Origin: Methanomicrobiales archaeon
GTDB lineage: Archaea; Halobacteriota; Methanomicrobia; Methanomicrobiales; JACTUA01
Direction: 5' to 3'
Assembly: GCA_028678815.1 (NCBI GenBank)
Contig: JAJRCS010000150.1
Coordinates: forward strand, 1-12,661
Length of the DNA stretch: 12,661 bases
Made by a program: the position numbers and the translations under genes. Of the stretch, positions 5,346 to 11,958 are shown in pieces. Numbering within the stretch: the first letter of the stretch is position 1; the number at the start of each line of letters is the position of its first letter. Under the pieces are notes generated by a model. The model made no database searches. It saw only the letters and a list, made by a program, of their open reading frames with translations, and had not been told where the DNA came from.

Positions 5346-8300
5346 ATGTTGTATTGCGGGATCCCCGTGCCAGCCGCCCCCAATATATCCCATATCAGGA
5401 AGAAGATCCACCAGGCCCTCCTACATAAAGATCTCGATGGCATCAGGGGCATCCTGGAGGATGTCCGGACCATCCAGAAGCGGAAGGAGCGGCGGGCCAT
5501 CCTCTCCGTTATCCACGAGGCCATCAAGGAGGCCATCTTCAAGGAGAACGTCCCCGACTTCCTCATCTTTTTAGGCGACCTTCCCTTCACCGAGATCCAG
5601 GAGGTGGCGGACCGGTCCATCAAGGCCTACATCGCGACGAGGAACGAGAAGTGGCTCCAGAAGACCATCGAGCTCTGCCACGGCCTCGACCGGAAGAACT
5701 ACCAGTCCAAGATCTTCTCGGTGGTCTCGAAGGAGCTCATCGAGGCCGGGGTTGCCCAGAAGGACCAGCAGCTGATGGAACGGGGGATGTCCACCATCCA
5801 CATGATCAGCTTCCGGAAGCACCGGTCGAGCATCATGATGGACATCATCCCCATGATCATCGTCTGGAGCGTCTCCACCGAGGACGACCGGCACCTCTAC
5901 ACCTCCCTCCAGCTCATCGATGTCATCGGGGATGTCTCCAAGCGCTCCATCCTCCACTCGGAGATCGCAAAGGCCATCGGGATGATCGGCATCCTCCAGC
6001 GGGACATCCGGGGCGTCCGGGAGGCCGTGAAGATCGCCATTATCATCAAGCAGAAGCAGCGCCGGATCACCTGCATCTCCCACATCTCCGAGCGGGCCTG
6101 GTCCTCGCCCCTCGGGAAGCAGCTGGAGGACGTGGTCAGCTTCATGAACCTCATGGGAGAGGTGCCCCAGCCGAGGAAGTACGAGATCCTCGCGGTCCTC
6201 ATCGAGCATCTCCTCAACCGGGTGAAGGACAAGAAACAGATCAACTACACCCTCCAGAACCTCGTCGATAAGATATCGGCGTCCCGGGAGTGCATCGTCC
6301 TCAAGCTCGTGAAGAAGGCCGAGCTCTCGGGGGATAAGGGGTACTTCGAGCGGGCCGTGGAGTTCAACGAGCAGATCACCGACGCCACCCACATCCCCAT
6401 CAAGGAGATCATCGCCTCGGCGAGCTCGGTCGTCGAGAAGACCGGGGACGTGAGCCTCCTCATGAAGACCGTGCCCCTCCTGGACATGGTGGCAAAGACC
6501 TCCGAGGAGTCGTACCTCCCCCAGTACCTCATGGTCTCCGACACCCTCCTCAAGCGGGGCAACCTCCAGAACGCCGTGGAGATCTTCGCCCGGATCGGCG
6601 GGCCGCTGGAGAGCGCGAACAAGGTGGCCATGGACACCTGCGTCCGGATCCTCCGGGAGGGGATCTTCCGGGACGAGACCGAGATCCTCAAGGAGAAGAT
6701 CCTCGCCCCCATGGACCCCGAGACCCGGGACTTTGTCATCAACCGGGCGGTCACCGAGTTCTGCACGGACGCGGAGTTCGTGGACATCATCGCCCACCTC
6801 CCCTCCCTCCAGTCCCTCACCCTCGCCCACCGGACGCCCGGGGTCCTCATCCCCGAGTGCATCCGGATCCTCATCGAGCGGAACTTCATCGAGTTCCAGG
6901 ACCCCTCGGCCCTCCTCTCCCTGGCGAACCAGATCCCGAACCGGGCCGAGAAGGAGCAGATCGTCTCGGCCATCGTCATCGGGATCGCGAAGGTGGGGGT
7001 GGCCCACAAGAACCGGGACCTCCTCCAGCGGGCGGTCGGCCTCTCCTGCGAGATCAAGGAGCAGCGGCCCCGGTCCGAGGCCCTCGGGCACATCATCGAC
7101 CAGGCGACCCTCCTCGCCGTGGAGCAGGGGGATCTCGACCTCCTCCACCGGATGATGAAGTGGACGGGGTCCCTCCTCGAGCGGGACTTCAAGCTCTATG
7201 CCATCGACAGCGTCATCAAGGGGATGATCACCTACGGCATCCACCACCAGTCCCCCAAGGCCCTGGACGAGGCGTACCTCATCACCCACACGGTGGACGA
7301 CCCGTCCCTCCAGCAGCAGCAGCGGGAGGCCATCATCGAGGGGCTCGTCCGGGTCGGGTGTATCCGGCTCACGACAGCGGTCACCCCCATCACCCCGGAG
7401 GCCCTGAAGTTCGAGATCGAGCCCTTTGACCGGGCCCTCTCCCTCCTCCTGGAGAGCGTGAACCGGTCCCAGCTCTCCCTCAAGATCTCGAAGTTCATCG
7501 ATATCATCCTCGAGTACGCCCAGGCGGCGAACCGGCAGGAGTTCCTCATCCCCCTCACGATGTTCATCCTGAACATCGAGGACCGGCTCGAGCGGAACGC
7601 CATGTTCTACCGGATCTCGGGGAACTTCCGGGATGTCATGGAGGACCTCGAGTCCACCGACCCCTACGAGATCGTCGCCGCGGTCCTCCAGCGCCTCCAG
7701 AGCGGGAACGTCTCGCCCCTCGTCCTGGACCTCATCCACCGGCTCCTCGAGCAGACGCCGGATTCGTACAAGAAGTTCGCGGGGCTCTGCAACCTCGCGG
7801 ACTCGTACTACTCCATCCAGGAGCGGGACAAGGGGACGGAGATCTTAAAGAAGGTGTACAGCAACCTCTCGTCCCTCACCGATGCCTACGAGCGGGCCCG
7901 GATCCTCGCCGATCTCGCGGGGATGCTCGCCCGGGTGGACGAGGCCCTCGCCCGGGACTGCCTGGAGGCGGCCATCGCCCTCCTCAACCAGGTCCGGGAC
8001 GAGAAGGGGTCGCTCCTCAGGAAGCACATCGTCTTTGCCATCCTCTCCCTCCACACGCTGAAGACCCAGGAGGAGAACCTGGAGACCGCCCTCGACCTCG
8101 TGAAGCAGATCGAGGATCCCACCGAGTACGTGAACGCCCTCATCGCCATTCTCTCCATGGTCATCACGGGGGACAAGGCGAAGGAGATCCTCGCGAATAT
8201 CTACGACGCCATCGCGGCCATCCCCTCGACGTACGAGCGCGTGGCCATGCTCCTCGACGTGGTCCCCCTCGCCGAGCAGTACGGGGACCCCAACGACGCC

Positions 8301-8948
8301 CTCCGGCTCCTGGACGAGGCCCGGGCAGAGGTGGAGTCCATCTCCATCTCCTACATCGGGACCATGATCAAGAAAGGGCTCGTCCAGGTGATGCTCATGG
8401 TGTACCACAAGCGGGGTGACGAGTCCATCAAGCGGAAGGCCCGGGACGTCACCATGCGCATCGAGGACGAGGAGGCCCGGTCCCAGCTCCTTGCCCAGAT
8501 CGGGTACGACCGGGCCGACGCCCAGGTGAGCCCGGTCTTCACCTCCCTCCACGTGCTCAGGGAGAAAATCAAGGAGGGACGGAACCCCTTAAACGAGCTC
8601 TCGAGCATCACCCACCAGATCAACACCCTCCCCGACCGGGCGAAGCGGGCGGCCTACTACATCGACCTCTTCCGGATCTTCACGGAGAGCAAGGAGGAGA
8701 AGATGGCGGAGCGGATGCTCTCCGCCGCCATCGACGAGGCGGCCATCATCCGGCCCCTCTCCCGCCGGGCCTACGTCCTCGGGGACCTCGCCCTGAACGT
8801 CTATTCCGCAGGGTTCGAGGAGCGGTCCAAGGACATCCTCGGCATGGCGGTGTACGCCGCCATGAACATCCGGGACGAGGGCCTCCGGGACGAGGTCTTC
8901 TACGAGCTGGACGTGGCCCTCCGGATCATCGAGGAGCGCCTTGCGTGA
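5346..8948 (+). CDS. Giant alpha-solenoid repeat protein of unknown function
   Basis: This 1200-residue protein is almost entirely helical, without signal peptide, membrane segment or recognisable enzyme domain. It is built from degenerate repeats of about 40 residues; the register is clear at 61-100, 101-140, 141-180, 181-220, and again at 516-555, 556-595 and 596-635. The pattern is roughly [DN]..LL..A..L...I.....R...L..II.....G...., a two-helix unit resembling TPR or HEAT repeats. The C-terminal third (about 840-1200) has similar helical pairs (DAYERARILADLAGML, STYERVAMLLDVVPLA). Such proteins usually act as scaffolds or protein-binding platforms; no partner is shown. Start: ATG 5346 lacks a ribosome binding site, and GTG 5367 (residue 8) is an alternative that fits the nearby TATA box better. 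The stop overlaps the acylphosphatase start by 4 bases (GTGA), implying translational coupling. Codon use is uniform and strongly biased to CTC, ATC and GAG, with no sign of recent transfer. Confidence 0.8.
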   Translation: MLYCGIPVPAAPNISHIRKKIHQALLHKDLDGIRGILEDVRTIQKRKERRAILSVIHEAIKEAIFKENVPDFLIFLGDLPFTEIQEVADRSIKAYIATRNEKWLQKTIELCHGLDRKNYQSKIFSVVSKELIEAGVAQKDQQLMERGMSTIHMISFRKHRSSIMMDIIPMIIVWSVSTEDDRHLYTSLQLIDVIGDVSKRSILHSEIAKAIGMIGILQRDIRGVREAVKIAIIIKQKQRRITCISHISERAWSSPLGKQLEDVVSFMNLMGEVPQPRKYEILAVLIEHLLNRVKDKKQINYTLQNLVDKISASRECIVLKLVKKAELSGDKGYFERAVEFNEQITDATHIPIKEIIASASSVVEKTGDVSLLMKTVPLLDMVAKTSEESYLPQYLMVSDTLLKRGNLQNAVEIFARIGGPLESANKVAMDTCVRILREGIFRDETEILKEKILAPMDPETRDFVINRAVTEFCTDAEFVDIIAHLPSLQSLTLAHRTPGVLIPECIRILIERNFIEFQDPSALLSLANQIPNRAEKEQIVSAIVIGIAKVGVAHKNRDLLQRAVGLSCEIKEQRPRSEALGHIIDQATLLAVEQGDLDLLHRMMKWTGSLLERDFKLYAIDSVIKGMITYGIHHQSPKALDEAYLITHTVDDPSLQQQQREAIIEGLVRVGCIRLTTAVTPITPEALKFEIEPFDRALSLLLESVNRSQLSLKISKFIDIILEYAQAANRQEFLIPLTMFILNIEDRLERNAMFYRISGNFRDVMEDLESTDPYEIVAAVLQRLQSGNVSPLVLDLIHRLLEQTPDSYKKFAGLCNLADSYYSIQERDKGTEILKKVYSNLSSLTDAYERARILADLAGMLARVDEALARDCLEAAIALLNQVRDEKGSLLRKHIVFAILSLHTLKTQEENLETALDLVKQIEDPTEYVNALIAILSMVITGDKAKEILANIYDAIAAIPSTYERVAMLLDVVPLAEQYGDPNDALRLLDEARAEVESISISYIGTMIKKGLVQVMLMVYHKRGDESIKRKARDVTMRIEDEEARSQLLAQIGYDRADAQVSPVFTSLHVLREKIKEGRNPLNELSSITHQINTLPDRAKRAAYYIDLFRIFTESKEEKMAERMLSAAIDEAAIIRPLSRRAYVLGDLALNVYSAGFEERSKDILGMAVYAAMNIRDEGLRDEVFYELDVALRIIEERLA

Positions 8949-9220
8949 AGACCATCGAGCTCTACGCCTCAGGCCGCGTCCAGAGCGTCGGGTTCCGGGC
9001 CTGCGTGAAGAAGGTCGCCGCAAACCTCGGGATCTCGGGTGAGGTGATAAACCTCCCCGACGGGAGGGTGCGGGTCACCGCCACCGCCGAGGAGGTCATC
9101 CTCGAGAAGTTCGTCTCCATGCTCTACGGGTGCCCCCGGGTGGTCATCCGGAACCTCGAGACCCGGGAGATCCCCCTCACGGCCTTCCCCGATTTCTCCA
9201 TCAAAAGAGCCCCCGATTAA
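8945..9220 (+). CDS. acyP: Acylphosphatase
   Basis: The 91-residue product is a full-length common-type acylphosphatase, which hydrolyses carboxyl-phosphate bonds such as those in acetyl or carbamoyl phosphate and 1,3-bisphosphoglycerate. The phosphate-binding loop reads GRVQSVGFR with the catalytic Arg18, and the catalytic Asn36 lies in VINLPDGRVRV. The loop has Ser where most family members have Gly (QGVGFR). The start is a GTG overlapping the stop of the solenoid gene (GTGA), so it is probably translated by reinitiation after that gene and made in related amounts. The gene is convergent with cas1 across a tandem hairpin-forming repeat that may terminate both. The product is cytoplasmic. 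The family call is secure; the physiological substrate is unknown. Confidence 0.9.
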   Translation: MKTIELYASGRVQSVGFRACVKKVAANLGISGEVINLPDGRVRVTATAEEVILEKFVSMLYGCPRVVIRNLETREIPLTAFPDFSIKRAPD

Positions 9221-9415
9221 TGAGCCTGGTCCGGCGGGTTGACCAGGAAGGGGCGGTTCCGCCCACGATTACTGAACCTGGTCCGGCGGGTTGACCAGGA
9301 AGGGACGGTTCCGCCCACGATTACTGAGCCTGGTCCGGCGGTTGGACCTGGAACGGGCGGTTCCGCCCACGATTACTGAACCTGGTCCGGCGGGTTGACC
9401 AGGAAGGGGCGGTTC
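9221..9415. repeat. 52-bp tandem repeat copied from the 3' end of cas1
   Basis: Three full 52-base units (9221-9272, 9273-9324, 9325-9376) and a fourth partial unit (9377-9415) run head to tail. The fourth is the actual 3' coding end of cas1 (codons for FLVNPPDQVQ); the others are extra copies beyond its stop codon. The period is not a multiple of three. Units 1 and 2 differ at two positions; unit 3 is more diverged. Each unit carries two dyads: CCTGGTC-N9-GACCAGG and GGGCGG-TT-CCGCCC. In unit 3 the first dyad is changed but still pairs (GGTCC-N7-GGACC). A short shared motif (TCGTGG on the minus strand), both inside cas1 and after its stop, could have seeded the duplication. Between convergent genes, the stacked hairpins may act as a two-way terminator. 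Confidence 0.9.
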
Positions 9416-10323
9416 TCCACGAGGGCCTCCCGGAACCGCACCACCATGCCGTCAATCTCCTCGCCCCTCACCGAGACGTAGAGCTTCGAGAGGAGTCGCG
9501 AGAGGAGCCCCTCGGAGAGGTGGCACCGCCGGTCCCCGTGCTCGAAGTCCCCCTCGCGGAGCCCCCGCCGGGCGAGCTCGAAGACGGCGTCGTCCACCAT
9601 GGCCGGCTTCAGGGGTTCGATGAGGTCATAGACGAGGCTCCCCGTCCCCTCGTGGAGCACCCCGAGGTCAGGGTCCAGGTTCGCCCCCGAGACCGCCCGC
9701 ATGCACTGGGAGAAGAGCATGGCGTACCCGAAGGAGAGCATGGCGTTCACCGGGTCCTGGTGGGGGCGCCTCGTCCTCCGCCGGAAGCCCAGGTCCGGGG
9801 GGAGGGTCCGGGAGAGGATCTCGTAGTACATGTCGGTCCCGAGGGAGAAGAGCCTCCGGACCTCGTCGAGCTTCACGAGGAACTCCATCTCCCGGAGGGA
9901 GGTCTCCAGGAACTCGAGCTCCCCCTTGTAGAGGATCCCGGTGCCGGAGGCCTCCCCGAGGCGCTCGAGCCGGACCATCCGCTCCCGGAGGGCGCCCGTC
10001 CCGATGGCGAGGGCGTACCGGTGGGCGGGGGCGAGCTTCTGGACGGCCTTGATCTCCTCGTCGGGGTGCCGGAGCGGGGGGTGGAGGAAGCCGACCGGGG
10101 TGCTGTCCTGGTCGAGGAAGCTGATGGCGCCCCCGGCCTTCAGGAGGTTCATGATGGCCGCGGTGTGGATGGTGTGGCCTCCGGCGATGACCAGGTGATG
10201 GACGCTCCGGAGCGGGAGGTTCTGAACCTCGCCCTTTCTCTGGATGATCAGCTGGGTGGGGGTGGCCTTGATATGGGCACCGAACCCCGACACGGTAAGC
10301 CAGGGAACCTTCTGGAGAACCAT
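9373..10323 (-). CDS. cas1: Stand-alone Cas1 integrase/endonuclease
   Basis: The 316-residue product is a full-length Cas1, the metal-dependent integrase that inserts spacers into CRISPR arrays as a Cas1-Cas2 complex. The N-terminal beta domain (about 1-85) is followed by the helical catalytic domain. The metal ligands are present: Glu168 (MYYEIL), His224 (GVLHEG) and Glu236 (YDLIEP), along with the family block DPVNAMLSFGYAMLF at 190-204. It therefore looks active. No cas2, cas4, interference gene or CRISPR array is in the window, and neighbours on both sides are unrelated. No PolB, HNH, helix-turn-helix tail or terminal repeats typical of casposons are seen. It may belong to the solo Cas1 groups reported from methanogens, or be a remnant of a lost locus. 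The stop codon lies in a 52-bp tandem repeat; the start (ATG, complement of 10321-10323) has only a weak GTAGAGG before it. Confidence 0.9.
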   Translation of the reverse strand: MVLQKVPWLTVSGFGAHIKATPTQLIIQRKGEVQNLPLRSVHHLVIAGGHTIHTAAIMNLLKAGGAISFLDQDSTPVGFLHPPLRHPDEEIKAVQKLAPAHRYALAIGTGALRERMVRLERLGEASGTGILYKGELEFLETSLREMEFLVKLDEVRRLFSLGTDMYYEILSRTLPPDLGFRRRTRRPHQDPVNAMLSFGYAMLFSQCMRAVSGANLDPDLGVLHEGTGSLVYDLIEPLKPAMVDDAVFELARRGLREGDFEHGDRRCHLSEGLLSRLLSKLYVSVRGEEIDGMVVRFREALVENRPFLVNPPDQVQ

Positions 10324-10362: not shown

Positions 10363-10390
10363 TGGGATGCACAGGACTTGAACTCATCGT
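10363..10390 (-). other. tRNA 3'-end-like motif upstream of cas1
   Basis: Read on the minus strand, 10390-10363 looks like the T-loop and acceptor end of a tRNA: GAGTTCAAGTCC followed by TGTGCATCCCA. The loop fits the TTCRANY consensus, but the T stem pairs poorly and no matching 5' acceptor (GGGATGC) is found upstream. So it is not a complete tRNA gene. It may be a remnant left by integration at a tRNA, or simply the end module of the adjoining hairpin array. Confidence 0.35.
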
Positions 10391-10404: not shown

Positions 10405-10648
10405 GAACCTGAGGGCTTAAGCCCGAGGGAGAACGCGGAGGACGATAGTCCGAGCGAGAACCACCGAGCAAAGCGAGGTGGTGAACCATAGGGGCGAAGC
10501 CCCTGTGGTGATTCGCACCTTCGGTGCTCGACCCCTCCGGGGGACGCGAAGGGCATCAGCCCGAACGAGAACCAGAGGGGCGGAGCCCCGATGGAGAACC
10601 GACGGACCGAAGGTCCGTTGGTGACCAACAGGCCGAAGGCCTGGTGGT
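10405..10648. repeat. Modular hairpin array between cas1 and arcA
   Basis: About nine units of mostly 25-27 bases run head to tail, most opening with GAAC(C) and closing with GGT or CGA: 10405-10430, 10431-10457, 10458-10482, 10483-10509, an irregular pair at 10510-10529 and 10530-10542, then 10543-10568, 10569-10595, 10596-10622 and 10623-10648. Each folds into a hairpin whose stem sequence differs but still pairs: GGGC/GCCC, GGAC/GTCC, AGGGGC/GCCCCT, GCACC/GGTGC, GGGGC/GCCCC, CGGACC/GGTCCG, AGGCC/GGCCT. Loops are 3-4 bases, often GAA. Outer pairs ACC/GGT extend several hairpins to 10-11 bp; in others a GA/GA tandem mismatch separates inner and outer stems. The array could be an RNA leader of arcA, a dispersed repeat element, or a cruciform-forming DNA site. 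The frame open across it on the minus strand is a by-product, not a gene. Confidence 0.8.
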
Positions 10649-10689: not shown

Positions 10690-11958
10690 ATGGAGCCAGG
10701 GGCGCGGGCCGAGTGGGACACCCTCCGGCACGTGATGGTGCACGAGCCCGGGATCGAGGTCTTCTTCGCGCTCCTCGACCCCGGCGCCCACCTCTACGAG
10801 CGGTTCTTCAACCACCACGAGGCCCGGTGGGAGCACCGGCAGCTCTGCGACCTCCTCCACAACTCCTTCGGGGTGCGGATCCACCACCTGAAGACCACCC
10901 TCATGGAGGAGGCGGGGGAGCCGGGCCCGGTCAGGGATCGGCTCGTCGCCCTCGCAGGGAGGCGGCTCGGGGACGGGAGGCCCGAAGGCAACGCCGGGGA
11001 GAGCGGTGGCGCCGGCAGGGCGGTCCCCCTCGCAGACCGGGACCCGGAGCACCTCTTCCGGATCGCCGTCCTCAACCCGGCCGTCGGCGACGGGAAGGCA
11101 GGCCAGGTACGGCTCCTCGGCCCGGTCCCGAACCTCTACTTCATGCGGGACCAGCAGGCCGCGACCGACCGGGGGATCTGTATGGGCCGGATGGCGACCC
11201 CCGAGCGGTCCGAGGAGGTGGGGATCACCTCCCTCGGCCTCGCGGCCCTCGGGATAGAGCCCGTCCACCGGGTCAGCCGCGGCCGGTTCGAGGGGGGCGA
11301 CTTCCTCCCGGCCGGTGATTTCGCCCTCGTGGGATGCGGTTCCCGGACGAACCCGGAGGGGGTGCAGGACCTCTTCCGGGGAGGGATCGGGACCGGCGAG
11401 GTGGCCGTCGTCCGGGAGCCCCGTCACCCCCTCATCACCGGCCGTGACCACATGGTGAACATGCACCTGGACACGTACCTGAACTTCCCGAAGGAGGGGG
11501 TCGCCGTCGGGAACCCGGCCCTCCTCCGGGAGGCGGGGGTAACGGTCTGGCGCCGCTCGGGGGACGGGTACGTGCGTGCCGGCCCGGGAGGGAACCTCAT
11601 CGAGTACCTGGGCGGGAAGGGATTCGGCCTGATAGAAATTACCACCCTCGAGCAGCTCTGCTATTCCACGAACTTCCTCTGCGTGAGGGACGGGGCCTGC
11701 GTCACCCCGGACGCGAGCTCCCTCGCCCCGATGGTACTCAGGCGCCTCGGGGAGAAGGCCCGGGCAGACCCCGGCACGTACGGGCGGCTCCTCTCCCAGG
11801 CCGAGCATGACTACGAGGTCCTGAAGGCCGAGTCCGAGTTCTTCCCCCACAAGAAAGAGGTCTATGATCACGGTCTCGAGATGACGACCCTCCTCCTCAC
11901 GAACGCCACCGGGGGGTACGGCGGAGCGCACTGCATGACCTGCGTGCTCGCCCGGTAG
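10690..11958 (+). CDS. arcA: Arginine deiminase
   Basis: The 422-residue product is a guanidine-modifying enzyme of the arginine deiminase family, converting arginine to citrulline and ammonia. Catalytic residues fit: Asp154 (NLYFMRDQQA, usually FTRDP), Glu201 (RFEGGDFL), His259 and Asp261 (VNMHLDTYLNF) and the nucleophile Cys415 (GGAHCMTC) near the C terminus. The FMRDQQ variant hints at a divergent, possibly archaeal, branch, so a related arginine-directed hydrolase cannot be excluded. A Gly/Arg/Glu-rich stretch at about 92-115 looks like a loop insertion. The ATG at 10690 is chosen because the family's N-terminal strand (EWDTLRHVMVHEPG) follows directly; the ribosome binding site is weak. 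The leader contains the hairpin array. The stop lies one base from the stop of the carbamate kinase gene, whose product acts two steps later in the same pathway. Cytoplasmic. Confidence 0.85.
   Translation: MEPGARAEWDTLRHVMVHEPGIEVFFALLDPGAHLYERFFNHHEARWEHRQLCDLLHNSFGVRIHHLKTTLMEEAGEPGPVRDRLVALAGRRLGDGRPEGNAGESGGAGRAVPLADRDPEHLFRIAVLNPAVGDGKAGQVRLLGPVPNLYFMRDQQAATDRGICMGRMATPERSEEVGITSLGLAALGIEPVHRVSRGRFEGGDFLPAGDFALVGCGSRTNPEGVQDLFRGGIGTGEVAVVREPRHPLITGRDHMVNMHLDTYLNFPKEGVAVGNPALLREAGVTVWRRSGDGYVRAGPGGNLIEYLGGKGFGLIEITTLEQLCYSTNFLCVRDGACVTPDASSLAPMVLRRLGEKARADPGTYGRLLSQAEHDYEVLKAESEFFPHKKEVYDHGLEMTTLLLTNATGGYGGAHCMTCVLAR

What the first reader, a model, noticed from the sequence alone, without database searches (positions are those of the whole stretch)
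10405..10648. Covarying hairpin array of 25-27-base units
About nine consecutive units share an opening GAAC(C) and a hairpin plan, while their stem sequences differ but remain paired (compensatory changes). Some outer and inner stems are separated by tandem GA/GA mismatches (units at 10405, 10458, 10569), which in RNA commonly form sheared pairs. This argues for selection on fold rather than sequence, in an array of a kind I cannot name. It sits as a 5' leader to arcA and directly upstream of cas1. It could be a new structured RNA, a protein-binding array or a dispersed hairpin repeat of methanogens.
Basis: partly seen in the sequence, partly recalled or inferred. Interest (0 to 1): 0.75.

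Follow-up and report, generated by a model that had tools for sequence, protein, structure and literature searches.

The report
Mobile double-hairpin repeat in peatland methanogens
This looks like a tiny piece of jumping DNA, built from pairs of 27-letter hairpins, that has inserted itself at the beginnings of genes in two related methane-making archaea, in one case adding a short stretch to a protein without shifting its reading frame.

Summary
The array is real (10405-10648, 244 bp): seven forward hairpin units of 25-27 bases plus a 59-base composite holding a reverse-oriented part and an eighth unit. Fold and covariation exceed shuffles. It is unlikely to be an arcA leader RNA or a cas1 part: in the sister species (G001) the same cas1/arcA gap is conserved and lacks exactly this array, closed at GGG^GA. 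Copies occur at three further places, each empty in the other species: a 54-bp doublet in frame in an archaemetzincin gene; a run at codon 4-5 of what is an HD-domain gene in G001 (contig end); and, in G001, a 54-bp doublet 37 nt before archaeosortase A. The minimal copy seen is a double hairpin, type A then type B. All four insertion points lie within about 60 nt of a start codon, in that gene's sense. Model searches of 150 order genomes and 392 phylum genomes gave copies that I accept only in these two. Neither gave a Y1 transposase or reverse transcriptase match. Best reading: a new family of small mobile double-hairpin elements, analogous to mitochondrial double-hairpin elements and Rickettsia palindromic elements, moved by an unknown mechanism.

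The parts
10405..10648 (+). whole inserted array, 244 bp; absent from the otherwise conserved cas1/arcA gap of G001
   Evidence: window left flank CCGGG and right flank GAGGGAAACCATCTTC match contiguous CCGGG-GAGGGAAATCATCTTC in L094
10405..10430 (+). unit 1, type A: 3-bp outer stem, tandem GA/GA, 4-bp inner stem, TTAA loop
   Evidence: direct reading; hand structural alignment
10431..10457 (+). unit 2, type A: outer CGC/GCG, inner GGAC/GTCC
10458..10482 (+). unit 3, short 25-nt unit with tandem GA/GA and AAA loop
   Evidence: direct reading
10483..10509 (+). unit 4, type B: 11-bp hairpin with C-GAA-G triloop
10510..10542 (-). composite, reverse-oriented part (limits approximate): two mini hairpins whose loops read GAA and GGA on the - strand
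   Evidence: direct reading; TTC and TCC triloops listed on +
10542..10568 (+). unit 5, type A, shares the core AGGGCATCAGCCCGA with the doublets at other sites; one outer pair is broken (C.A)
   Evidence: (model match 10542-10597)
10569..10595 (+). unit 6, type B stem with GA/GA internal loop and GGA triloop
10596..10622 (+). unit 7, type B, GAA triloop
10623..10648 (+). unit 8, type B, identical to a unit in G000:C130 but for one missing base
9373..10323 (-). cas1 (flanking, not part of the element); its start codon is 82 nt from the array
   Evidence: PF01867 183 bits; distance
10690..11958 (+). arginine deiminase-family gene ('arcA'), start 41 nt after the array
   Evidence: PF02274 118.6 bits; far below NCBIfam's arcA cut-off, 52.2 against 489.1; gap

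Best explanation
The array is an insertion of a small, non-coding mobile element whose smallest copy seen is a 54-bp doublet of two hairpins: an A unit (3-bp outer stem, GA-type internal loop, 4-bp inner stem, tetraloop) and a B unit (hairpin of up to 11 pairs with a C-GAA-G triloop). SHOWN: copies sit at four unrelated places in two sister species, each place empty in the other; at the three complete sites the insertion is clean, with flanks GGG and GA that look like the junctions between units; 54 bp (18 codons) keeps the reading frame in the archaemetzincin gene. INFERRED: a hairpin strand (single-stranded DNA, or sense RNA copied back) is the moving form, it joins at a short GGNGA-like match, and insertion of new units at the same junctions inside an existing copy, or slippage between units, grows doublets into arrays such as the one in the window. 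INFERRED: insertions near start codons survive because the 5' ends of genes tolerate them. The mobilising enzyme is unknown; the two kinds tested were not found.
For: Filled/empty pairs at four sites: cas1/arcA gap; archaemetzincin, where L109-L113, 5 of 5 relatives read, lack the 18 residues; archaeosortase A upstream region (filled in G001; no doublet in G000, nor in the 220 nt printed for G002, G005 and G006); the TFE/HD-gene junction (empty in G001 and G002). The doublets of G000 and G001 agree in 51 of 54 bases at different loci. The same units recur at different places: window unit 8 and a C130 unit differ by one missing base. Model R2 scores the best copies at 77.4, 77.1 and 77.6 bits (the model was trained on these copies, so this is no independent proof). 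Covariation (weaker) and better folding of the + strand in 5 of 5 units. Orientation: 4 of 4 copies in the sense of the gene whose start is nearest; insertion points 41 nt and 37 nt before a start codon and 57 nt after one, and at codon 4-5.
Against: Only four sites are known, and one is cut off by a contig end. Insertions are seen between species, not within one population. No match to the two enzyme families tested, so the moving step is not explained; other transposase families were not tested. Two of the four sites lie in gaps between divergent genes, so 'sense' there means the nearer start (41 nt against 82 nt to cas1 in the window). One empty site (G000, archaeosortase A) reads CGC^GAA rather than GGN^GA, and GGNGA is common (about 12 per kb per strand), so the target rule is loose. 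The array could have grown by local duplication after one insertion. Both genomes are metagenome assemblies and one is 71% complete.
Confidence: 0.75

Rival explanations
1. A structured regulatory RNA or mRNA leader of the downstream gene, kept by selection on the fold.
For: Strong fold (z -8.2), compensatory changes, sense orientation and position just before arcA and archaeosortase A; by my reading of the units, G-T wobbles outnumber A-C mismatches on the + strand about 4 to 1.
Against: The same gene pair lacks the array in G001, and the upstream stretches of the arcA homologues of G002, G003 and G007 printed show none. Other copies lie inside coding sequence or by unrelated genes. No Rfam family reached its gathering score; best sub-threshold match GA-cis, 21.1 bits against a cut-off of 34.7, E 0.04.
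Confidence: 0.1
2. A local expansion: a short quasi-palindromic sequence at each site was enlarged by replication slippage and template switching between arms, without movement between sites. Arm-to-arm correction would also explain the paired stems without selection.
For: Units begin and end at a junction that resembles the target; arrays of different lengths; reverse-oriented part inside the array; no match to the two enzyme families tested.
Against: The 54-bp doublets that agree in 51 of 54 bases at different genes in two species, and specific units shared between loci, need copying between places.
Confidence: 0.12
3. A non-autonomous element moved by an IS200/IS605-type tyrosine transposase, as REP elements are, with GAAC in the role of GTAG.
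For: Short hairpins with a nearly fixed tetranucleotide at the 5' foot, asymmetric (one strand), doublets and arrays.
Against: No Y1 transposase match in G001 (98% complete) or G000 (71%), while the search rings in 5 of 14 control genomes. The tag is GAAC, not GTAG or CGTC.
Confidence: 0.1

Closest known systems
Mitochondrial double-hairpin elements (DHE) of Allomyces and fission yeasts, and related GC clusters and hairpin elements of yeast and sponge mitochondria
   Same: Short GC-rich hairpin elements (DHEs: two hairpins), differing in presence or number between related species, mostly between genes but also inside genes; merger and shuffling of units and an unsettled mobility mechanism are described for yeast GC clusters (passages of PMC10085805, PMC4478555, PMC2800124; Paquin 2000 only as cited there)
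   Different: Those are in mitochondrial DNA of eukaryotes; sequence kinship was not compared; here copies lie at gene starts in sense orientation, in an archaeon
Rickettsia palindromic elements (RPE)
   Same: Palindromic, inserted in frame in protein genes (passages of PMC10969869 and PMC3733652)
   Different: RPEs are about 150 bp (PMC10969869) and those of R. conorii end in CGTC (PMC3733652); here 54 bp or more, tag GAAC, an archaeal host
REP / BIME elements with RAYT transposase
   Same: 20-40 bp hairpin units with a tetranucleotide at one end, doublets and arrays (passages of PMC3733652)
   Different: No GTAG or CGTC tag, no Y1 transposase match in either genome, units mostly head-to-tail in direct orientation, few copies

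Membership tests
REP elements (GTAG or CGTC superfamilies) | terminal GTAG or CGTC tetranucleotide | tested here: not met
   units begin GAAC or a close variant; sequence read
REP elements (GTAG or CGTC superfamilies) | RAYT (Y1) transposase in the genome (GTAG type) | tested here: not met
   PF01797: 0 of 2 genomes, controls ring in 5 of 14; G000 is only 71% complete
Rickettsia palindromic elements | in-frame insertion in protein genes | tested here: met
   archaemetzincin: 18 extra residues, absent in 5 of 5 relatives read
Rickettsia palindromic elements | CGTC tag, Rickettsia host | tested here: not met
   no CGTC at unit ends by reading; the sister genome's record is a Methanomicrobiales archaeon
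Double-hairpin elements | two adjacent hairpins as the unit of insertion | tested here: met
   two 54-bp A+B doublets at different loci in two species
Double-hairpin elements | mitochondrial location | tested here: not met
   archaeal genome contigs with ordinary archaeal genes
Double-hairpin elements | sequence kinship with known DHEs | not tested
   no DHE sequence was compared
MITE | terminal inverted repeats of 15-30 bp and target duplication | tested here: not met
   no such TIRs by reading; a short flanking GGGGA repeat at two sites (GGTGA on one side at the third) is compatible with a 5-bp duplication but equally with target choice
CRISPR array | near-identical repeats separated by unique spacers | tested here: not met
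   hairpin units contiguous and diverged; no tandem call at the array
Known RNA family (Rfam 15) | match at gathering score | tested here: not met
   0 matches in the whole window

The most novel reading that the evidence does not exclude
An archaeal class of mobile double-hairpin elements that moves without an IS200/IS605-type transposase or a reverse transcriptase, chooses GGNGA sites near translation starts in the sense orientation, grows by inserting into its own junctions, and adds new N-terminal peptides in steps of nine codons per 27-bp unit.
Probability: 0.3. Interest if true: 0.75.

Novelty: new variant of a known kind. Interest (0 to 1): 0.55.

Why it matters
How elements of about 50 bp with no gene of their own move is unsettled for mitochondrial hairpin elements (PMC4478555, passages). 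Here are filled and empty sites of such an element in an archaeon whose nearly complete sister genome gave no reverse transcriptase or Y1 transposase match, so the candidate mechanisms shrink and can be tested with more strains. It also shows an archaeal protein gene with an 18-codon insert made of a hairpin repeat.

Tried and rejected
Leader RNA or riboswitch: not the main reading, because the sister species has the same gene pair without the array and no Rfam family reached its cut-off. tRNA remnant at about 10363-10389 (looked like the end of a tRNA on the - strand): ARAGORN found no tRNA in the window, and the stretch is not conserved in G001.

Wider dispersal. (DNA, 31 genomes): matches in 2, G000 and G001. 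Apart from G000 and G001 I read 11 loci behind the next best matches (L034-L044): six (L034-L037, L040, L043) are one stretch conserved between genomes that looks like gene sequence, L038 is a microsatellite, and none of the 11 shows an array; the remaining weak matches were not read. (G000 and G001 only, E <= 10, laxer filters): 25 and 17 matches; besides the accepted copies and C2:88736 I read nine of the next ones, none an array. (392 phylum genomes, E <= 0.001): 6 genomes, namely G000, G001, G038 and G062 (the same gene stretch), and G294 and G412 (read, no array). (looser pattern, 150 genomes): 19 with a match; of the printed matches only G000:C130 is a unit. The control pattern matched in 2 genomes. 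Pattern scan of genome contigs: 9 matches, 1 true (JACTUA010000003.1), 8 read and rejected. Plasmids and phages: no match.

Open lead, partly against 'one genus only': the 14-base A core occurs once each in G005 and G006 (same family, other genera), in both cases with a pairable outer stem by my reading. But model R2 without filters gives at best 11.4 bits, E 0.07, at that place in G006, and 9.6 bits, E 0.2, next to it in G005, so I do not count them.

G001:C2:88736 (39.5 bits) is a 26-27 bp tandem repeat at a start/stop overlap without the hairpins, and was not counted as a copy. Model R1 was built with my structure string wrong (outer pairs shifted by two) and was never used in a search. One search's alignment of the cas1/arcA gap placed the gap badly and was not used; the site was read by eye. 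In one search two of five loci (L005, L008) were printed from the wrong place; L008 was re-read. One search was an alignment with two units cut one base late, replaced. Promoter/terminator scan: 0 and 0 (bacterial models).

Literature: searches (held open-access library only) listed no paper on such an element in Methanomicrobiales; this is no proof of absence. Papers: PMC2800124, PMC4478555, PMC3733652, PMC10969869 and PMC10085805 seen as passages only; all others as search listings. The unusual stability of d(GCGAAGC)-type DNA hairpins is recalled; one search listed papers that use the term. I did not test transcription, protein binding or other transposase families.

Full report
What is there. 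The window lies in an incomplete metagenome-assembled genome (G000, 1.18 Mb, 71% complete). Between cas1 (minus strand) and an arginine deiminase-family gene (plus strand) lie 244 bases, 10405-10648, made of hairpin units of 25-27 bases: seven forward units plus a 59-base composite (10510-10568) that holds a reverse-oriented part and an eighth unit. The fold is far better than shuffles (z -8.2), and the hairpin density (9) was reached by 1 of 970 overlapping background windows.

Two unit types. Type A has a 3-bp outer stem, an internal loop rich in GA, a 4-bp inner stem and a tetraloop; type B is a hairpin of up to 11 pairs with a GAA (or GGA) triloop closed by C-G, often with one A.G mismatch. 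Stems change on both sides: 3 of 7 pairs in A (5 units, covariation score reached by 4 of 500 shuffles) and 5 of 11 in B (6 units, 0 of 500). Left out of these two counts: units 1, 3 and 8 of the window, the reverse-oriented hairpins, and three odd-length or degenerate units of C130. The arm-exchange test listed 15 units (without unit 3, the reverse-oriented hairpins and the degenerate first C130 unit), kept 5 distinct ones per type, and is weaker: 6 of 120 permutations for each inner stem, 12 and 24 of 120 for the outer stems. The units are related by descent, so these numbers are not probabilities. The + strand folds better than the - strand in 5 of 5 units tested, as DNA and as RNA.

It is a mobile insertion. 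In G001 the cas1/arcA gap is conserved on both sides but reads CCGGG-GAGGG where the window has CCGGG-[244 bp]-GAGGG; the stretches before the arcA homologues of G002, G003 and G007 in the same call also lack it. A 54-bp doublet (A then B) sits in G000:C175 inside an archaemetzincin gene (NF033823, 147.4 bits against a cut-off of 145), 57 nt after its start codon, adding EPAGHQPEGEPTGRSPGG in frame; the five relatives read lack it and run straight through. In G001 a doublet that agrees in 51 of 54 bases lies 37 nt before archaeosortase A (TIGR04125); G000 lacks it, and the 220 nt printed upstream in G002, G005 and G006 show none. In G000:C130, after the stop of TFE, four units follow a degenerate first one and the contig ends in a further one. 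G001 and G002 have no insert there; in G001 the place is the fourth to fifth codon of an HD-domain gene, whose body is not on the G000 contig. By outgroup comparison three sites are gains in G000 and one in G001. All four insertion points lie within about 60 nt of a start codon and in that gene's sense; two of them are in gaps between divergent genes, where the other start is farther (82 nt for cas1). With four cases the orientation may be chance (1 in 8 for all alike), but the position is striking.

Boundaries. At the three complete sites the left flank ends GGG and the right flank starts GA; unit junctions in the arrays read GGN/GA or a variant. The empty alleles of the other species read GGG^GAG, GGC^GAG and CGC^GAA. 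GGNGA occurs about 12 times per kb per strand in the G001 stretches examined, so it is a loose target. At two sites the flanks can be read as a 5-bp direct repeat GGGGA around a 49-bp element; at the window site one side reads GGTGA. I cannot tell a target duplication from target choice.

How it may move. The two genomes gave no match to Y1 transposases or reverse transcriptases, while control genomes rang (5 and 3 of 14). Other transposase families were not tested. G000 is incomplete, but G001 is 98% complete and holds an insertion of its own. I therefore favour a folded strand joined at a short match by an enzyme of another kind or by repair, with growth of arrays by re-insertion or slippage at the same junction. 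This step is inferred.

How widespread. Model R2 on 150 genomes of the order and on 392 of the phylum gave copies that I accept only in G000 and G001; the filters were strict and not every weak match was read. A scan of genome contigs with a B-unit pattern gave 9 matches, 1 true. Viral contigs gave none for two unit patterns, and the matches to the bare A core there behave like chance; plasmids and phages gave none. Single A-like hairpins in G005 and G006 may be distant relatives or chance (best 11.4 bits). A family this narrow fits a young or locally spread element.

Comparison. The nearest in kind are mitochondrial double-hairpin elements and GC clusters, and Rickettsia palindromic elements (passages read). 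It fails the membership tests for REP (no GTAG or CGTC tag, no RAYT match), for MITEs (no long TIR) and for CRISPR. It works like a double-hairpin element, but in an archaeal genome. I rate it a new variant of a known kind.

Limits. Assemblies are not checked against reads; the census rests on a model trained on these same copies; the protein database could not be searched; transcription and function of the array are untested.

Noticed in passing
window 9209-9415: A 52-bp unit repeated four times in tandem overlaps the 3' end of cas1 and reaches the acylphosphatase stop; the tandem-repeat scan of G001 (L105) shows none there, and the end of the cas1 reading frame differs.
   Followed up: partly
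window 9373-10323: cas1 stands between acylphosphatase and an arginine deiminase-family gene, and G001 has the same arrangement. No CRISPR-like array was called in the window; the other reading frames were not scanned for cas genes.
   Followed up: partly
L062 8700-8810: In G001 a 26-27 bp motif with TGATGGAGAACC is repeated three times across an overlap of a stop and a start codon between two genes that look like cbiM and cbiN (names recalled); it matches model R2 at 39.5 bits but has no such hairpins.
   Followed up: partly
L139 2177-2200; L140 around 2430 (minus strand): Single A-like hairpins with the core GGGCATCAGCCCGA and a pairable outer stem in G006 and G005, other genera of the family; the G006 stretch is GC-rich and hairpin-rich. 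Not significant with model R2.
   Followed up: partly
L121, upstream of the archaeosortase A gene: G002 (another genus) has GGGGCGGAGCCCC, the same inner hairpin as window unit 6, within the 220 nt printed before its archaeosortase A gene, without the flanking unit sequence.
   Followed up: no
window 5346-8948: A 1200-residue open reading frame without a Pfam match at E 0.001.
   Followed up: no
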